A program made the translations under genes and the position numbers. The notes beneath the pieces are model-generated. The model was given only the letters and a program-made list of their open reading frames with translations. It did not search any database and was not told the origin of the DNA. 64,000 bases of DNA from Sialis fuliginosa (taxonomy: Eukaryota; Arthropoda; Insecta; Megaloptera; Sialidae). The stretch covers positions 18,289,638 through 18,353,637 of the forward strand of contig OY540815.1 in the NCBI GenBank assembly GCA_961205875.1, read 5' to 3'. Shown piece after piece: positions 74 through 10,037 of this stretch (position 1 is its first letter; each line of letters opens with the position of its first letter).

Positions 74-255
74 CTGTATGTACAACTTGGTGTCTCTTCA
101 TTTCTGATTTATCTCGAAACCTCTTGTCGCAGACAGGACACGGATGTTTTCTCTCGTTCGTATGTGTTTTCATATGTTCCAGTAGATTATTATTCCGAGT
201 AAATGTTTTTTCACACTGAACGCACTTGAATTTACGTACTCCTGCATGACTGATT
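74..255 (-). CDS. Alternative zinc-finger exon M3 of the ZAD gene (cassette 3, terminal exon lies off the left edge)
   Basis: A 182-nt internal exon on the minus strand with acceptor ...ttttcag before 255 and donor CATACAG|GTATCA after 74. It enters in phase 2 and leaves in phase 1. It encodes the tail of a finger begun in the shared exon (I-S-H) and two C2H2 fingers, FKCVQCEKTF...H and HPCPVCDKRF...H, ending V-V-H-T-G. The inter-finger linker is T-N-E-R-K-H-P, not the usual TGEKP type. The length and both phases are identical to exons M1 and M2 further right. No partner terminal exon is visible because the window ends 73 nt downstream; one is predicted just to the left. The reading frame and finger residues are seen; use as an alternative 3' cassette is inferred. 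Confidence 0.85.
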
Positions 256-829
256 CTGAAAATGGATGTATTTTAATCAGTGATGCGTTTCCACATCAAC
301 GAAGATTGTCTATATCTAAATGAATAGAAAAAAATGTTGAATAATGTGATTGTCTGCTCTTTAACTGCAATAGTTGTGACTACTATGATGATTTCTGTTA
401 ATAGATGCTAAATTTCTAGTAAAAATATAATTTTTTTTGGGAGAGCATAATTTTTATCTGTGGATTGCAGATTCTTGCTCATGTATTAGTTTGACAGTAA
501 TTGTAATAGAAGTTAGAGCTTTTTATACAAAAAAATCTCACCCAGGGCTAAAGCTGGCTCTGCTGGTCAGTTTGGAGAAGTTTCACTGTGTATATAATAA
601 TATACTGTTCAAAAGCCAAAGTAACTAATTTTTCTTTTATCAATAAAATAAAATCTTGAAGTTTCATCTGGCTTTTGAATGATTGATAAAGAATAAAAAA
701 GTAATTCCAACATATAAATAAATAAGTGTAACAGTTACAATAATAATAAATCAACTTTATTTAAATCATTGATATAAATACCGTACAACATATTAAATTA
801 TTTATAAAATAGGTATCTTATACATAATT
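256..829. other. Spacer between cassettes 2 and 3 (3' UTR of T2 plus intron)
   Basis: AT-rich and non-coding. The right end, 756-829, is the likely 3' UTR of terminal exon T2. The rest would be intron when cassette 3 is used. Short open frames here show no recognisable protein. Confidence 0.5.
756..761 (-). promoter_or_regulatory. Poly(A) signal AATAAA for cassette 2
   Basis: TTTATT on the plus strand reads AATAAA on the minus strand, about 70 nt downstream of the T2 stop codon (830-832). It gives cassette 2 its own possible 3' end, as an alternative terminal exon needs. Confidence 0.5.
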
Positions 830-1976
830 TTATTGATGCTTTTTCATGTGTGTTCGCAAACTAACTGCGTGTATAAAGCTAGCTCCGCACAGTTCACAGA
901 CTTTTGTTTTTTCACCTGTATGTATTTTCCGATGAACAACAAGTTGGCATTTTCTTGTAAAACATCGCCCGCAAAAGTCACATTTAAAGTTTTTGATACC
1001 TAAAATGTTACATTGATCTTTATTTGTTGAATACTGTACAATATTTTACGTTATACAAAGCTGTAGGAACTTAATTTTTAAATGTATATATCGTTGGCTT
1101 ACAAGCAAAATACATTAAAAACTATACCTGACAGTTTTATAAAAAAAAATGTATTTTGTCTGCTTGAATGTGTTATTTCAGACTTAGTAGAAACCTAGAA
1201 ATATAGATTTTAGTGTTACAGCAAAATTATATGACTTTGTTATTATGACTAAAATCCTATAAGATAGTGCATTTATGTCAGAAATTAAAAAAATCAATAT
1301 AATATAATTTGCTTGTAAATCAATGATTTATAATTTATAAATTTCCTGTAGCTTTGATAATACAATAATCTGAAAAAATGACCTATTTTAGGACTTATAA
1401 ATATCAATGAAGGGATAAAAAATCATTAATTACTTTTAAACTTATGAAATCTTAACTATATCTGAAATTATTAAATTCCAACAAATTTGTATCCCAAATA
1501 ATAATTTAGATATTATTTCAGAGACACAAATATAATAATTAGATATTGGCCTCCGAAACCAAAACAATTATTATTATAGTTTCCTAATTGTTGCCCAAGT
1601 TCTGAGATACAAACTGCAGGTAAAAACAAGTAATAAGTAATAAAAATATACCGAACAACCTTAATTTAAAAGTATCGATTTGACATGATAAAACCATTTT
1701 AAATAGTTTATCTAAATCAAATCTTTAATTAAAAATGTGATGTAAAGTTCTAAAATAGGTCCATATTTTTCGGTATATATTCAAATCACCGTACCAGTAT
1801 GAATCAACGTATGTTCTTTGAGAAGGCCGTTAGAGCTGAACCGTTTCCCACACACAGTGCACTGGTAGTTTTTTTCACCTGTGTGCGACCGCATGTGTGT
1901 CGTTAAGCTACCGGACCGTAGGAACTTGTGTCCGCAAACTGGGCACACGTGTTTCGGGTTTCCATTATGTGAGATT
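830..1976 (-). CDS. Alternative zinc-finger cassette 2 (exons M2 and T2) of the ZAD gene
   Basis: Two exons. M2 is 1795-1976 (182 nt; acceptor tttttttag, donor CATACTG|GTACGG; phase 2 in, phase 1 out). T2 is 830-999 (170 nt; acceptor acattttag; stop TAA at 830-832). M2 begins I-S-H, supplying the last histidine of finger 4 of the shared exon, then carries two fingers, HVCPVCGHKF... and YQCTVCGKRF.... T2 carries FKCDFCGRCF... and VCELCGASF..., ending H-M-K-K-H-Q. The intron between them is 1000-1794 (795 nt). Joined to the shared exons 5195-6179, cassette 2 gives a 423-residue protein with ZAD and eight fingers. Frames, cysteine/histidine spacing and splice sites are all intact, so it is probably functional. 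Confidence 0.85.
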
Positions 1977-3237
1977 CTAAAAAAACACATATATGATTAA
2001 TATATATGTCGTAAACAGTACTTGAAGTGAAGCTACCTTTGTTTTTTAATAAATTTCAAGCCATGTTGCTTCCTCTTTTAAGTCCGTTAGGTAAAAATTA
2101 ACTAAGGTAATATTTATAGTTAATTATCAACACCACTTCAAGCACTGTTTAACAATATTATCTAATTATAAACATATACATATTTCTTATAACAAAAGCC
2201 TCAGTCATGTCTGAGAATAAGAGAGAAGAATATCATTATGTATATTGTGTGGGAATTCTGGAACTATAATCACAGGAATTTTGGAATAGTCTTAAAATGT
2301 TTATTATATAATCTATTTTTACACATCAAAATTTCAAATCATTCCGATGGTTACTTTATTAGTTATAGCTTTTTAAGTACACGAAAAGCAAGTGGACCAC
2401 TTTACTAGATCTAACTTAATCTACAATATTTTGTTGTGTACTAAATATGACTCACATTTGATCATCAATATTAATGTTTGAGTTATAAAAATTTCTGTCA
2501 TAAAATAAAATGTAATACATAGAACTTTGATTGCTTTTAACAAACTTTTTTTTCGAGATATTGACAACGGATACAAAGCATTATTTAGAGCAGTCTATTT
2601 TCTATTAAATCCTAAAATTTCAATTTGAAATTCAATTAGATATATTAAGTGGTTGAACGGAATTCTACTTTTTTGATACCATTTTGTTTGAAATTTTATC
2701 AGCTTTAAGATTTATAAAAACCTTTTTTATCCTAAAATTGATAGTTCCAGTGTGTTTTCCAAATACATAACTGATTTTAGACATATTGTAAGCTCCTAGA
2801 AAGTTATGCACCTCCCTTCAAAGGGGGAAAAGTGATCATTGTGTTCCATACATTGAAATCTATAAACTTGAAAAAATGTACTCTAGCATTTTTTTTAGCT
2901 AAAAAATACACTGAATCATTATGCTATTTTTGTTAGTACTTTCTCAAGTAGGGGGCAAGTTTTCATCTTCATAAAGAAATTAAAATTGTGATATTTTTGA
3001 TAATAATCAGAACTAAAAGAAGTACCAGGATGTGCTATATTTTAAATGTATTGATAATATAGATAAGTAAGAGAGAGATGGACATATTCAAAAACAATAG
3101 AAGGAGTCTGTAAACACATTTTTTTTAGTTTCTTTGTTGTTTAATAGTTCTTACTGTTAAATTATTTATAAATGTATTTCATATAATATAAATCACTGTA
3201 TAATGTATATATTATATATATATTACAAATACTGTAA
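1977..3237. other. Spacer between cassettes 1 and 2
   Basis: AT-rich, with no coding sequence recognised. The part just below 3238 would be the 3' UTR of T1; the remainder is intron for isoforms using cassette 2 or 3. No AATAAA on the minus strand lies close to T1; a weaker TATAAA-like match is present near 3165. Confidence 0.5.
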
Positions 3238-4041
3238 CTACTGGTGCTTTTTCATATGTGTTCGCAAACTGACTGCGTGAATGAATCTTGCAGTGCAGCA
3301 ATGACATTCATGGGGCTTCTCCCCCGTGTGAATTTTCCTGTGCATGGTCAGTTGAAATTTTCGAGTAAAACAACGACCGCAAAATTCGCACTTAAAATTT
3401 TTGATACCTAAAATTTTATATTCGTTAATATTGATATTTTTAACCGGCTAATGTACAAACGCAGTGAGCAAAAAATTGATTCATTTTCTAGCTTTATATT
3501 CCAGTAAAAGGAAGAGATTATTAAATGAGATTAAATTTAAGATTGATTAAAAGTGGCTCTTAAAACGTTTAAATTTCTATAATATTTATTGGAAAACAGT
3601 GAAAGCAATATTAGGTAAACAGGTTGCTAGACTACTTTTCTTGTATCTATGATTTAACAAAAATAATTAAGTAGAGCCGTTTAAAAAAAATTTCTTGGTC
3701 CTTCAGAGAAACAATATTTAAATAGTTGTTAACACACTACTTTACTTAAAGCCATTTAATAATACTTTTTAATTTAAAATAAGTCAATTCAAATATTTTA
3801 TCCTTTTGAAAGTTGTTTAATTTTTTGACCCACTCGGTATATAATATTGAACAACGTACCAGTATGTATGAGCATGTGTTCTTTCAGTAGATAGTTTGTC
3901 CTGAACATTTTATTGCACGCACTGCATTCAAACTTTTTTTCACCGGTATGAATTGTCATGTGTTTATGCAAGGATCCATTTTGACTGAATTTGCGATCAC
4001 ATACAGGACAAACGTGTATTTTTCTTTCTTTATGAGTAATT
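3238..4041 (-). CDS. Alternative zinc-finger cassette 1 (exons M1 and T1) of the ZAD gene
   Basis: Two exons. M1 is 3860-4041 (182 nt; acceptor ttgttatag, donor CATACTG|GTACGT; phase 2 in, phase 1 out). T1 is 3238-3407 (170 nt; acceptor aaattttag; stop TAG at 3238-3240). M1 begins I-T-H, completing finger 4 of the shared exon, then HVCPVCDRKF... and FECSACNKMF.... T1 has FKCEFCGRCF... and HECHCCTARF..., ending H-M-K-K-H-Q as in T2. The intron between them is 452 nt. Exon lengths and phases match cassette 2 exactly. This is the cassette nearest the shared exon; the predicted isoform is 423 residues, like that of cassette 2. Confidence 0.85.
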
Positions 4042-5194
4042 CTATAACAATATAACATGGTTGAAATTTGACGGTAGGGATATCTATTTTAAATGTTTAA
4101 GCTTTTAAATTATTTTATTTGTTTCATTATACTACAATATACAGTTGAGTATTTTTTATCCGGTAGATACGTTCCACACAAAACCGTTTATAAATAAGTC
4201 GCACAAAATAAGACTTAGCTTACATTGTAAAATTTATTAAGGATACATTTCATCATTTTTTTAAAACGCATAAAACCAAAGAAATAAATTAAAAAAATAG
4301 AAATTCTCTTAAAAAAAGGTTAGGTTCAATAATTTCATTTAGCACTGACAACCATTGTTGGTTATCTTTCTCTGGGACAAAGTTACAATATTAAACTACC
4401 ATTTTTGGAAAAATAAACTGTTATGTTATATGTGGAGAAGTGTTTTTAATATTATAAACAAATAGGAACCTGTGTTAAAGCAATATTTGTTGCTAACTGA
4501 TTAGTTACTTTTGCATGTGACTTTCGATAATGAAAAAAACAAATACCTACTCAATTAAACTTCTCAAATGCTCATTGCTTATATGATCATTAATTGTATT
4601 TTATGTGAATGTCAGAATGCCACTCTCTCGTTACAATGGGGAACCCTCGAATTTACTTGAAATATCGCACTGCATAACTTCAAAAATGCATTAAAAAGAT
4701 AAACTTAAAATAATATAAAACTTAAATATTATAAATAGCAAGTCAGCGTATGGCTTACTATTTTTAATTATTTAGCTGTAATTGGCGCTTTCTATGATAG
4801 TATTGCAATCTATTGGTCCGCAAAGAAAACCACCTTGTTGATTATGGTATTGTAATAACATATACCAGCGCGAACAAGTAAATAGTATTTCAGTAAACAG
4901 TTCTGGCTGAACATTTTATCGTAATGCAAGCCAACACCTAAATAGTTGATCTGATTCTGAGTATAAGATAACTTATTCAAGAGATAGGACACAAGATTCT
5001 GCATGTGTAAAGGGGATGAAATAATCACCAGATTCAAATTGTTTTTAGATAACATTTAAAAAAAGTAAATTGTAAAATATATCCAGCAGCATCAGAAATA
5101 CATCTATTGTAGAAATAAAACAGTTACAATCTTTTTAAATTAAGTCTTATGTTGCTGTATGCATTTTACACAAAAAGCAGTCAAATCTACTTAC
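4042..5194. other. Intron between shared exon 2 and cassette 1
   Basis: Non-coding except for the decayed cassette exon at 4866-5026. Sequence around 4510-4690 has a faint resemblance to a terminal (T-type) exon, which would fit a dead partner of that relic, but the match is too weak to annotate. Confidence 0.5.
4866..5026 (-). pseudogene. Decayed zinc-finger cassette exon (relic M0)
   Basis: The minus strand still reads ...LHYDKMFSQNCLLKYYLLVRAG followed by GTATAT, which lines up with ...CNKMFRTNYLLKEHMLIHTG|GTACGT of M1. The donor position is kept, and stretches such as GATAAAATGTTCAG are near-identical to M1. The zinc ligands are lost: the first finger's cysteines and histidines are largely gone, the second finger's cysteines are L and Y, and its final histidine is R. 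The remnant is about 161 nt against 182 in the intact exons, so it carries deletions, and its acceptor AG is not evident. It stays partly open by chance but cannot form fingers. It is read as a dead copy of the cassette unit. Confidence 0.7.
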
Positions 5195-6179
5195 AGATGT
5201 GAGTGCAAATGAGGCCTTTGCGAAAATCGTTTTCCACACTGTTGACATTCAAAGGGTTTTTCTTTAGAGTGAGTGAATAGGTGTCTCTTCAAGTTTTGTG
5301 CATTTGCAAAGTCCTTGCCACAGTGTGGGCACAAGTGGGGTCTTCTCTTCTCTTCTTCAGTGTGTTCATGCTCCATGTGCCATTCCATATTCTCTTTAAT
5401 GTAATAGTTCTTACGACAGTATTTACAGATGAATCTATCCACCATGTCGTGTGCCTCTTTCATGTGAAATCTTAATTCTGCTGTTTGGGTGAATTCAGCA
5501 ACGCATAATTCACATTTTCCTGAATGAAATTTAAAATGGCAGCTGCGTTTTCCCTTTTGCCGTTTTAATCTCTCGATTTTCTTTTTGACTACTTCTGGTA
5601 AATCGGTAGGGGGCAGTTTTTCTGGTTCTGTTGTATCATCATCGTCATTATCGTTATTATCATCACTGATATCTTCTGTTTTGATTTCTTCCGGCTTTGG
5701 TTCAATCGATCGTTTGATTTTAACTCTTTTTGTTTCGTTAATTCTTTTAATAATTTTTTTCACATTATTGCTTAAGTTTGTTGTTTGACGGGGTAATGTA
5801 TGTTTTTCGGTATTCGCGTCATTTTTATTTTCTATACGTTCGCTTGTTATTTGAGAATGATGGCCTAAAAGTACTTGTTCTGATTTTTCACACATCATTT
5901 TGAATTTGTATGAAACGAATAAAGTATTCACACAACGGACACATATTTGTTGAGGGAGAACATCGTCTTGAGAGACCTAAAATATAATGCAAATAAATAA
6001 ATATACCTACTTTTAAGTTTCTTTAAAAAAATAATGCTTACATGTACAGCTGTGCACTCCATTAGCATTTCCGAAACAAGACATAATTTATTAGCGTATT
6101 TTATTTTGTTGTGTAAAGGAACAGTCATTTTTTCGGTTATAGTTTTTAAACACGCCCTACACTTTTTTAATGAATTCAT
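5195..6179 (-). CDS. Shared 5' part of a ZAD C2H2 zinc-finger gene with alternative 3' exons
   Basis: Exon 1 is 6042-6179 (138 nt, 46 codons, start MNSLKKC). Exon 2 is 5195-5976 (782 nt). The intron is only 65 nt (donor CAT|GTAAGC, acceptor attttag). Together they encode a ZAD: CRAC near residue 8, a hydrophobic helix including SEMLMEC, then ICVRC after the intron and a helix ending KMMCEKS. A lysine-rich linker with an acidic run (DDNNDNDDDD) follows. Three complete C2H2 fingers come next (KCELC..., FICKYC..., HLCPHC...), then a fourth, FECQQC..., which is cut by the phase-2 donor CATCT|GTAAGT after its first zinc histidine. The cassette exons supply the missing last histidine. ZAD domains dimerise and such proteins are usually nuclear DNA-binding regulators (family knowledge). 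Target and biological role are unknown. Confidence 0.88.
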
Positions 6180-6617: not shown

Positions 6618-8226
6618 TTAAATCTTATGTTTCTTCATATGTTTCCGCAAGCTGACCGCATGAAGATATTTTGCACCACATATTTCACAAATTTTATTTT
6701 TTTCTCCGGTGTGACCTTTAATGTGAGATATCAAATTCCATTTGCGGGTAAAAGCCTTTCCACATAGCTCACAAGGAAAATCTCTTGCTCCTAAACACAA
6801 GTCAATTTTAAATAATATTCAAAATAGTATCAGATTAAAATCGACTTTTTAAGCCGTAACCAAATTTCAGTTTTTATCTCAGATTTCACTAAATGAATGA
6901 AACTGATTGAGTTTGACTAAGTACATTCAAGTGGGTCAGACACTCAAAATTTAAAAATGTATTATATAATAATCAATAATTATATTATAATTGTATTTTA
7001 AACAATTCAATAATTATAATATAATTGAATTGTTTAAAATACATTTTTGCAGATACAAATTTATTTTCAGGTGGCAAAACTATTCAATTAAACGAAATAT
7101 GTAATAATAAGACTAAAATTATGGCCCACTAACACTCTCAAACTAGCTAAAATTCTAATAATTACCAGTATGTACAGGCATGTGCATTTTAACTTCATGT
7201 CTTGAACTGAATTTCTTCTCGCATACATCACACGCATATCTTTTTTCACCTGTATGCATTCGTAAGTGAAAATGTAGGGCTCCAGATCTAAGAAACATGT
7301 GGCTGCATACTGGACATTTAAATTTGCGTTCTCCACTGTGGCTAAGTAAATGAGATTTCAGTAATTGCTTTTTTTTGAACTTCTTGTCACACAAAGTACA
7401 TTTGAAAGGTTCGTCATTCGAGTGTCCTAACATGTGCTGTTTTAAGTTTGTGGAGTTGACGAATTTTTTACCGCATTGTGTACACAAGTACTGTTTTGAT
7501 TTTTGTTTTGCCGTGTGTCCAAATTCCATGTGTTCCTCTAAATATGTTTCTGTGAAAAATCTTCGTCTGCAATAATTGCAAGGGTATGTGTCTATTAAAT
7601 TGTGAATTTCTTTCATATGAACTTTAAGTTGTATTAAGTTTTCAGAAACCACGTCGCATAATTCACACTTTTCCTGTTTATATATTTTATTTGTAAATGA
7701 TTTTTTTGATATTTTTTCTATGTTTTTTTTTGTCTCTATTATTTTATTCCACCTAATAGGACTTTTAATTTGTTTTTCAGGTTTTTCTTTATTTATAGTA
7801 ACTGTATTGTCAGTTAATTCGACTGATACACATTTTTCTATTACATCATTCTCATCGGAGTAGTTACAGTCATACTTATGATCAGTGGTGTTGATATTTT
7901 GCATTTTTAATATATCGGCTGATTTTTCACACATTTTTCTAAAGTTATATGAAATTGTGAGTGTGTTAACACACTCACTGCATATATGTTTAGGGTACTC
8001 ATCATCTGGTGAAAGCTGTAAGAGTATTTTTGTTTCATAAACATGTACATGATACGTTATATAGAATATAAACACTTACTTGAATAGAACTGCACTCCAT
8101 TAGCATTTCTGATAAAGTGCAATCTTGACTTTGGTTTTGAATAACATTATCCAATGTCATTGTGATTGCTGAATTTGTGTTTAAACAAGTTCTACATTTA
8201 TTACACATTTGATTTTGTTCTTTCAT
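6618..8226 (-). CDS. ZAD C2H2 zinc-finger protein, three exons, eight fingers
   Basis: Exons are 8080-8226 (147 nt), 7166-8015 (850 nt) and 6618-6790 (173 nt). The introns are 64 and 375 nt, with donors CAA|GTAAGT and CATACTG|GTAATT and acceptors ctcttacag and tgtttag. The product is 389 residues, counted from the methionine of MKEQNQMC; an in-frame ATG 42 nt further upstream (8268) is an alternative start. The ZAD has CNKC/CRTC in exon 1 and ICSEC in exon 2, ending KMCEKS as in the neighbour. After a basic linker come eight C2H2 fingers: KCELC, YPCNYC, YLCTQC, FKCTLC, FKCPVC and YACDVC in exon 2, then FPCELC and KICEIC in exon 3. The last finger keeps HAVSLRKHMKKH, as in the neighbour's terminal exons. 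It is a tandem paralogue of the gene at 6179, but its fingers 1-6 lie in one uninterrupted exon and no alternative 3' exons are seen. It is probably a nuclear DNA-binding regulator; target unknown. Confidence 0.9.
6992..7043. repeat. Perfect inverted repeat in the last intron of the three-exon ZAD gene
   Basis: Arms 6992-7011 and 7024-7043 (20 nt each, TGTATTTTAAACAATTCAAT and its exact complement) flank a 12-nt AT loop. It would form a stable hairpin in the pre-mRNA. It may be a tiny foldback element or a chance AT palindrome; the perfect arms favour the first. Confidence 0.7.
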
Positions 8227-9181: not shown

Positions 9182-10037
9182 ATGTCTGACGTGGAATCAG
9201 ATGTATCATCCAAAAATGGAAGCTACAAAGGTTCAGAGGGCGATTGGGTATGCCCAGATTCACAGTAAGTATTTGACAGTGATAAATATCATTTGCATGC
9301 TTTGAAAATAATAACAAATCAAATACAGGTGCGGAAACGTAAATTTCGCACGCCGGAAACAATGTAACCGATGTAACAAAGATCGTATTATCGAGTCGAC
9401 CAAGAAGAAGAAACTTGGTCAAGAGATCGGCAAGGCAGCTGCTGAAAAAAGCAAAGGTTTATTCAGCGCTGACGATTGGCAATGTAACAAGTAATGTTTT
9501 TAATTTAAAGTAATGTTTATTTGTTTAACATCCACGATCGTTTAAATATTATTGTTGTAATTTGTGCCAATTGCCGGAGCAGGTGTGGTAATGTGAACTG
9601 GGCGCGCAGGCAGCAATGCAATATGTGCAACGCGCCAAAGTTCGGAGAGGTCGAAGAGCGCACGGGGCTCGGAGGCGGTTACAACGATCGTGGTGTCGTC
9701 GAGTACAAGCAGCGGGACGATTCGGATGATGAATACGATGAGGTATAGTAGACTGTCGCAGAGGTTAACTAAAGTTATTTAAAAACATAAAATGATTCAG
9801 TTTGGTAGACGAAAAAAACGTAAAAACAAAGATGATGATCATGCAAGCGATAGTAGCAGTTCTCACAGAAAAGAACGTAACAGTGACGCGTCCGAACATG
9901 GAGAAGACGACGAAGAGGAGGATGATGATGACTGCGATGTTTCAAAGTATGACTTGAGTGACTGGGGTGATGTAGAAACAAAACCTAAAGAAAAATCCAG
10001 AAGCAGATCAAGGTCTCCTTTAAATTCTCAAAGGTAA
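9182..10037 (+). CDS. ZRANB2: ZRANB2-like RNA-binding splicing regulator (two RanBP2-type zinc fingers)
   Basis: Four exons: 9182-9264, 9329-9490, 9583-9742 and 9801-10037, with introns of 64, 92 and 58 nt. The product is 213 residues. RanBP2-type finger 1 reads DWVCPDSQCGNVNFARRKQC..C and finger 2 reads DWQCNKCGNVNWARRQQC..C. Both keep the N-x-N-[FW]-A-R-R stretch that contacts RNA in this family. A GLGGGYNDRG...DDEYDEFGRRKK segment, an acidic tract, SKYDLSDW and a short SR tail (SRSRSRSP) follow, as in ZRANB2 orthologues. Known members bind single-stranded AGGUAA, the 5' splice site sequence, and associate with spliceosome proteins in the nucleus. The tail is short compared with vertebrate ZRANB2. 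The TAA stop at 10035-10037 overlaps a possible donor (AAAG|GTAATC), so a longer or different C-terminus is possible. Confidence 0.93.

What the first reader, a model, noticed from the sequence alone, without database searches (positions are those of the whole stretch)
74..6179. ZAD zinc-finger gene with a tandem set of interchangeable 3' zinc-finger cassettes
Downstream of one ZAD-bearing 5' part (5195-6179) lie M1+T1 (3238-4041), M2+T2 (830-1976) and M3 (74-255, terminal exon off the window), all minus strand. Every M exon is exactly 182 nt and every T exon exactly 170 nt, each T with its own stop. The layout matches the alternative 3' zinc-finger exons of BTB genes such as lola, but on a ZAD dimerisation domain. 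Several DNA-binding specificities would then share one dimerisation module. I know of no described ZAD gene with this design, though that was not searched.
Basis: partly seen in the sequence, partly recalled or inferred. Interest (0 to 1): 0.92.

Follow-up and report, generated by a model that had tools for sequence, protein, structure and literature searches.

The report
Insect ZAD gene with swappable finger sets
An insect gene seems to pair one protein-pairing domain with any of three alternative sets of DNA-reading zinc fingers, so that one gene could make several transcription factors; this rests on DNA sequence alone, with no RNA evidence.

Summary
One ZAD 5' part (6179-5195, minus strand) is followed by three M+T zinc-finger cassettes; the missing T3 lies just left of the window and no fourth was found. 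The three M exons are 182 nt; T1 and T2 are 170 nt, T3 is 179.

Reading frame fixes the grammar: 9 of 9 joins 5'-M-T stay open, while skipping M or chaining M exons breaks the frame. The shared donor cuts finger 4 before its last zinc ligand, and every M supplies that histidine, so M2 and M3 look built to be joined to a half finger. All 51 zinc ligands are intact; synonymous sites are saturated while amino-acid change is restrained. No ZAD was found between cassettes, whereas a control cluster has 12 ZADs for 12 terminal exons.

The genome holds a larger candidate: a unique ZAD 5' part on contig C9 followed by at least 18 tandem zinc-finger frames. Best reading: lola-like alternative 3' zinc-finger exons on ZAD genes. 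No RNA and no second species could be examined.

The parts
6042..6179 (-). Exon 1: start codon and first half of the ZAD (CRAC...MEC)
   Evidence: Pfam zf-AD on the joined protein
5195..5976 (-). Exon 2: second half of the ZAD, linker, fingers 1-3 and finger 4 up to its first zinc histidine; donor CT|gtaagt, phase 2
3860..4041 (-). M1, 182 nt: last ligand of finger 4 plus two fingers
3238..3407 (-). T1, 170 nt: two fingers and stop
3140..3145 (-). ATTAAA, 93 nt after the T1 stop; no AATAAA within 400 nt
1795..1976 (-). M2, 182 nt
830..999 (-). T2, 170 nt: two fingers and stop
756..761 (-). AATAAA after T2
74..255 (-). M3, 182 nt; no in-frame ATG between the upstream stop and its first finger. 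Its T3 (179 nt, then AATAAA) lies left of the window at -433 to -611 (G000:C7:18289026-18289204; L009 8889-9067)
   Evidence: T3:
6618..8199 (-). Neighbouring ZAD paralogue, for comparison only: first ZAD half 8199-8080, exon from about 8015 to 7166 with M fused in, T exon 6790-6618

Best explanation
This is one ZAD zinc-finger gene whose 3' end was duplicated in tandem. A transcript starts at the ZAD exon and carries a constant part: ZAD, linker, fingers 1-3 and most of finger 4. The donor at 5195 then joins M1, M2 or M3. Each M completes finger 4 and adds two fingers. M then joins a T exon, which adds two more fingers, the stop and its own poly(A) site. The products would share the ZAD dimerisation module and fingers 1-4 and differ in fingers 5-8, hence in DNA specificity. 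Frame allows matched pairs (M1T1, M2T2, M3T3) and also in-order mixed pairs (M1T2, M1T3, M2T3), but not M skipping or M-M chaining. Shown: anatomy, frames, selection, no other ZAD found in the locus. Inferred: the splicing, use of all cassettes, dimerisation, different targets.
For: All 9 M-T pairings with the 5' part give a full open frame; the 3 direct 5'->T joins stop after 308-311 residues and the 6 M-M chains tried stop after 391-395. Finger 4 needs the histidine at M position 4; it is present in M1, M2, M3 and the fused paralogue. Of the two ZAD genes here only the 5195 exon ends in a half finger; the paralogue runs straight into its own M. Nonsynonymous change is restrained while synonymous change is saturated: T1/T2 pS 0.85, pN 0.13; M1/M2 0.76, 0.27; M2/M3 0.87, 0.41; Fisher p 1.2e-5 or lower for the six within-set pairs. 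No ZAD-like exon between cassettes. Each T is followed by ATTAAA or AATAAA within 400 nt. Helix contact residues differ between M1, M2 and M3 and between T1/T2 and T3. Control cluster C8: 12 ZADs, 12 terminal exons. Second ZAD locus on C9 with a phase-2 donor and mostly phase-2 zinc-finger exons.
Against: No transcript evidence of any kind. M1 and M2 each have an in-frame ATG 17 and 14 nt before the exon start (read), so a short separate protein is not excluded for them. T1 lacks AATAAA. dN/dS tells of past constraint and would miss very recent loss of use; with the paralogue's M the weakest pair is M1/MN, p 0.013. No second species could be searched for the same array. T1 and T2 share the contact residues of their second finger, so T choice changes little between those two. 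The survey of other ZAD loci was cut short.
Confidence: 0.83

Rival explanations
1. Trans-splicing: cassettes 2 and 3 are transcribed from promoters of their own and joined to the ZAD transcript in trans, as in mod(mdg4). Protein products would be the same.
For: Insect precedents: mod(mdg4) isoforms from alternative 3' exons with independent promoters (PMC12692577, abstract and passages), seen in Lepidoptera and Diptera (PMC4667647, passages); lola by cis and trans (PMC1947980, passages).
Against: All exons lie in order on one strand within 6.8 kb, so plain cis splicing suffices; nothing in the sequence demands trans-splicing.
Confidence: 0.08
2. Cassettes 2 and 3 are separate genes with small first exons of their own, making ZAD-less four-finger proteins.
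For: M2 has an in-frame ATG 14 nt before its exon start, and M1 one 17 nt before; spacers of 1261 and 574 nt could hold promoters (lengths; promoters not tested).
Against: M2 and M3 keep the phase-2 acceptor and the histidine that only serves a finger split upstream. M3 has no in-frame ATG before its first finger.
Confidence: 0.06
3. Cassettes 2 and 3 are decaying leftovers of tandem duplication; only cassette 1 is used.
For: Tandem duplication of ZAD genes is seen in this genome, and a terminal exon that looks damaged exists on C4.
Against: Six exons with intact frames, borders and 51 of 51 zinc ligands at saturated synonymous divergence; 0 of 5000 neutral runs from M1+T1 kept frame and ligands at each of d = 0.2, 0.5 and 1.0.
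Confidence: 0.03

Closest known systems
lola (Drosophila BTB zinc-finger gene)
   Same: A constant 5' part with a protein-interaction domain joined to one of about 20 carboxy-terminal exons, most with zinc fingers (PMC1947980, passages).
   Different: BTB, not ZAD. Here the constant part also carries fingers 1-4, the junction lies inside a finger, each cassette is two exons, and the cassettes are closely related tandem copies (whether lola's exons are was not tested).
mod(mdg4)
   Same: Constant 5' part plus variable 3' exons, some of them tandem repeats; reported in moths and butterflies too (PMC4667647, passages).
   Different: BTB and FLYWCH domains, exons on both strands in flies, products made by trans-splicing.
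cucoid (mosquito ZAD-ZNF gene)
   Same: A ZAD gene with three transcripts that differ in their 3' ends; the maternal isoform uses an alternative last exon (PMC9810180, PMC6783274; passages).
   Different: Its short isoforms lose fingers; the passages seen describe no duplicated replacement finger cassettes.
Clustered ZAD-ZNF genes of Drosophila
   Same: Tandem ZAD-ZNF genes, many sharing intron/exon structure with neighbours (91 genes, 37 of them in 13 clusters; PMC7655104, passages).
   Different: As described there the unit is the gene; here only the 3' end is repeated.

Membership tests
ZAD-ZNF (zf-AD zinc-finger proteins) | N-terminal zf-AD domain above the Pfam cut-off | tested here: met
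   38.3 bits, cut-off 28
ZAD-ZNF (zf-AD zinc-finger proteins) | C-terminal array of C2H2 fingers | tested here: met
   PF00096; fingers listed
ZAD-ZNF (zf-AD zinc-finger proteins) | ZAD dimerises | not testable with these tools
   Inferred from the family. Sequence matches to solved chains were weak (best 7pok_A, E 2.3e-5)
Lola-type gene (alternative 3' zinc-finger exons) | One shared 5' part, several downstream 3' cassettes without a 5' part of their own | tested here: met
   No further ZAD exon found in 51.5 kb searched beyond this gene and its neighbour
Lola-type gene (alternative 3' zinc-finger exons) | Each cassette in frame with the shared donor and with its own stop and poly(A) signal | tested here: met
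   T1 has ATTAAA only
Lola-type gene (alternative 3' zinc-finger exons) | Transcripts join the shared part to each cassette | not testable with these tools
   No RNA data available
Lola-type gene (alternative 3' zinc-finger exons) | BTB domain in the shared part (lola itself) | tested here: not met
   The Pfam scan gives zf-AD and C2H2 families, no BTB. It works like lola; it is not lola
mod(mdg4)-type trans-spliced gene | BTB plus FLYWCH domains | tested here: not met
   (cassette 1 protein)
cucoid | Orthology to cucoid | not tested
   No cucoid sequence was compared

The most novel reading that the evidence does not exclude
ZAD genes have evolved into lola-like hubs at least twice in this genome. 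The window gene has three two-exon cassettes that could be mixed (six in-order M-T choices). The C9 gene has one ZAD part without fingers and at least 18 alternative zinc-finger 3' exons. One dimerisation module would thus be shared by a whole set of DNA-binding specificities whose products can pair with each other.
Probability: 0.5. Interest if true: 0.87.

Novelty: new variant of a known kind. Interest (0 to 1): 0.68.

Why it matters
ZAD-ZNF genes are described as the most abundant insect transcription-factor class, growing by lineage-specific gene amplification (PMC7655104, passages). Here growth seems to happen inside a gene: finger sets are copied while ZAD, promoter and perhaps expression stay shared. 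Products of one gene could form homo- and heterodimers with different specificities. It gives a direct test of whether dimerisation domains favour hub genes regardless of fold, and it would mean that ZAD repertoires counted one gene at a time are underestimates.

Tried and rejected
Rejected: serial use of all M exons in one long protein (frame breaks). Rejected: cassettes as parts of genes with unnoticed ZAD exons (tblastn found none; the printout was cut in the middle, but the lines for the two ZAD-exon queries were shown). A look-alike on C4 (finger set at 4048650-4049200) was dropped because it has its own ZAD at 4049834. C2:2030418 and 2029735 look like serial exons of one gene, judged only from the finger counts of neighbouring paralogues. 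A BTB search of the genome as a positive control for lola did not complete. A wider survey of all ZAD loci could not be made: 20 of the 108 stretches asked for were granted. Literature: (search listings, at most 20 titles with abstract starts each). No listed title or abstract start describes a ZAD gene with duplicated alternative finger cassettes; most subscription papers and all preprints were not searched. The species was not determined.
Full report
OBSERVATION. The window is G000:C7:18289638-18353637, in a 392-Mb genome of 20 contigs. On the minus strand lies a ZAD exon (6179-6042) and a second exon (5976-5195) with the rest of the ZAD, a linker, three complete fingers and most of a fourth. 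Downstream follow M1 4041-3860, T1 3407-3238, M2 1976-1795, T2 999-830 and M3 255-74. The left flank holds T3 at window -433 to -611, so the set is three full cassettes. A pattern scan finds no further C2H2 finger on that strand until a different one near -21,900. All three M exons are 182 nt; T1 and T2 are 170 nt, T3 is 179 nt and one residue shorter between its fingers.

FRAME GRAMMAR. The 5' part is 920 nt and ends in phase 2; M ends in phase 1. I joined the 5' part to all 9 M-T pairings: 9 of 9 are open to the T stop (423 or 426 aa). All 3 direct joins to T, and all 6 M-M chains tried, hit an early stop. In transcript order 6 of the 9 pairings are possible by cis splicing. The architecture therefore enforces one M and one T, but does not by frame force M1 to go with T1. 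The neighbouring paralogue's donor (7166) is also in frame with T1, T2 and T3, so read-through joins are possible in principle.

THE SPLIT FINGER. The donor at 5195 cuts finger 4 (CQQCGKRFSQRPHLHSHL|) before its last zinc ligand. Position 4 of M1, M2 and M3 is that histidine, as it is in the paralogue where M is fused to the upstream fingers. With M1 attached finger 4 is complete. An M exon used by a separate gene would have no need of this residue. M3 has no in-frame ATG between the preceding stop and its first finger; M1 and M2 do, 17 and 14 nt before the exon start.

SELECTION. Among M1-M3 pS is 0.76-0.87 and pN 0.27-0.41; among T1-T3 pS is 0.82-1.01 and pN 0.13-0.31. Fisher p for the six within-set pairs runs from 1.2e-5 to 3.9e-15; over all 12 pairs computed, with the paralogue, the weakest is M1/MN at 0.013. 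Pairs share sequences and are not independent. All 27 M and 24 T zinc ligands are intact, 51 of 51. Neutral simulation from M1+T1 kept frame and all 17 ligands in 0 of 5000 runs at each of d = 0.2, 0.5 and 1.0. Spacers show no convincing similarity to each other (best E 0.007, 31 nt), which fits old duplications.

NO HIDDEN ZAD; CONTROLS. tblastn of both ZAD exons against 39.5 kb of left flank plus 12 kb of window found only this gene and the neighbour as ZADs; other matches up to E 1 are fingers or weak. In the C8 cluster 12 minus-strand ZAD matches face 12 four-finger terminal exons. On C4 a set that looked ZAD-less has its own ZAD. In the genome-wide search with T2 (150 of 2402 candidates scored) the four best matches are T2, T1, the paralogue's T and T3: four T exons for two ZADs.

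WHAT DIFFERS BETWEEN CASSETTES. Recognition positions -1, 2, 3, 6 are QGSK/TYLE (M1), RGST/SGLE (M2), RNNE/DSER (M3), RFQM/HVST (T1), RCQV/HVST (T2), QKAV/QVCM (T3). M choice would change two fingers; T1 and T2 differ in one finger only. That these positions set specificity is textbook knowledge of C2H2 fingers, recalled.

A SECOND, LARGER LOCUS. Searching with window proteins turned up tandem finger frames on C9. Fetching 30 kb there showed a ZAD 5' part at C9:22877784-22877918, 22878486-22878830 and 22878893-22879056, without fingers, zf-AD 48.2 bits. Its last donor is GG|gtgagt, phase 2. In the following stretch, up to 22902000, lie 10 frames with fingers on the same strand, nine complete and one cut by the end; at least 8 more frames reach 22.931 Mb. 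By a fixed rule (open [CT]AG with the most pyrimidines before it) the top acceptor is in phase 2 in 8 of 10 frames, tied between phase 2 and 1 in one (22893005) and in phase 1 in one (22895153); two of the eight are weak, with 8 pyrimidines of 15 (22890894, 22897760). With one third expected the binomial p is 0.003; the true expectation is somewhat above one third, because in-frame TAG rules out part of phase 0. Eight joins that I built with phase-2 acceptors of my choice, the tied and the phase-1 frame included and two of the ten left out, are open, with 7-10 fingers each. In 4 of those 8 there is no methionine between junction and first finger, so they need an upstream coding exon; the other 4 have one. 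5 of 8 have AATAAA or ATTAAA within about 400 nt, the first three do not. Over the last 170 residues pS is 0.66-0.91 and pN 0.29-0.48 in the 28 pairs. No close copy of the C9 5' part was found elsewhere: all 20 candidates were scored, its own three exons matched and two distant ZADs followed at E 0.006. One search had missed this ZAD, because only 150 of 194 candidates were scored or because it is split over exons, so cannot exclude other weak ZADs in the 29 kb of the array that I could not fetch. In the part that I hold, tblastn with the C9 and window ZAD exons shows no second ZAD.

MECHANISM. Shown: exon anatomy, frames, selection, no other 5' part found. Inferred: alternative cis splicing with cassette-specific poly(A) sites, shared ZAD dimerisation, different DNA targets. 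Trans-splicing is a live rival because insects use it in genes of this layout.

COMPARISON. It works like lola (constant part with an interaction domain, alternative finger exons; PMC1947980, passages) but is not a BTB gene. The nearest ZAD precedent found is cucoid, with alternative 3' ends that remove fingers (PMC9810180 and PMC6783274, passages). Ten literature searches listed no ZAD gene with duplicated replacement cassettes (titles and abstract starts of at most 20 papers each); the library lacks most subscription papers and all preprints, so this is absence from these searches only.

VERDICT. It is a new variant of a known kind: lola-style modularity on a ZAD. Its interest rises because a larger locus of the same kind seems to exist in the same genome.

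Noticed in passing
G000:C9:22877784-22931195 (+); L034, L033, L035: Candidate ZAD hub: one ZAD 5' part without fingers (three exons, phase-2 donor) followed by at least 18 tandem zinc-finger frames; of the 10 examined, 8 have their top acceptor in phase 2.
   Followed up: partly
L033 and L035, starts of the C9 zinc-finger exons: 5 of the 10 frames examined carry a psi-K-x-E motif (VKQE, VKKE, IKEE, IKNE, IKQE) before the first finger; the reading as a SUMO-type site is recalled.
   Followed up: no
window 7166 and 6618-8199: The neighbouring ZAD gene has M fused to its upstream fingers, and its phase-1 donor is in frame with T1, T2 and T3 of the finding, so shared terminal exons between two ZAD genes are possible.
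   Followed up: partly
L024, C4:4040519-4040829 (+): A C4 ZAD gene ends in a terminal exon that looks damaged: its second finger breaks off after SAERSHLCPV. A possible decaying gene among intact relatives.
   Followed up: no
L013-L018, C8:20512957-20543232 (-): Twelve tandem ZAD genes, most with a two-finger exon followed by a four-finger terminal exon; used here as the 1:1 control, age not examined.
   Followed up: partly
window 9315-9748 (+): Two RanBP2-type zinc fingers (CGNVNFARRKQCNRC, CGNVNWARRQQCNMC) followed by an acidic and SR-like stretch; looks like a ZRANB2 gene (recognised from memory).
   Followed up: no
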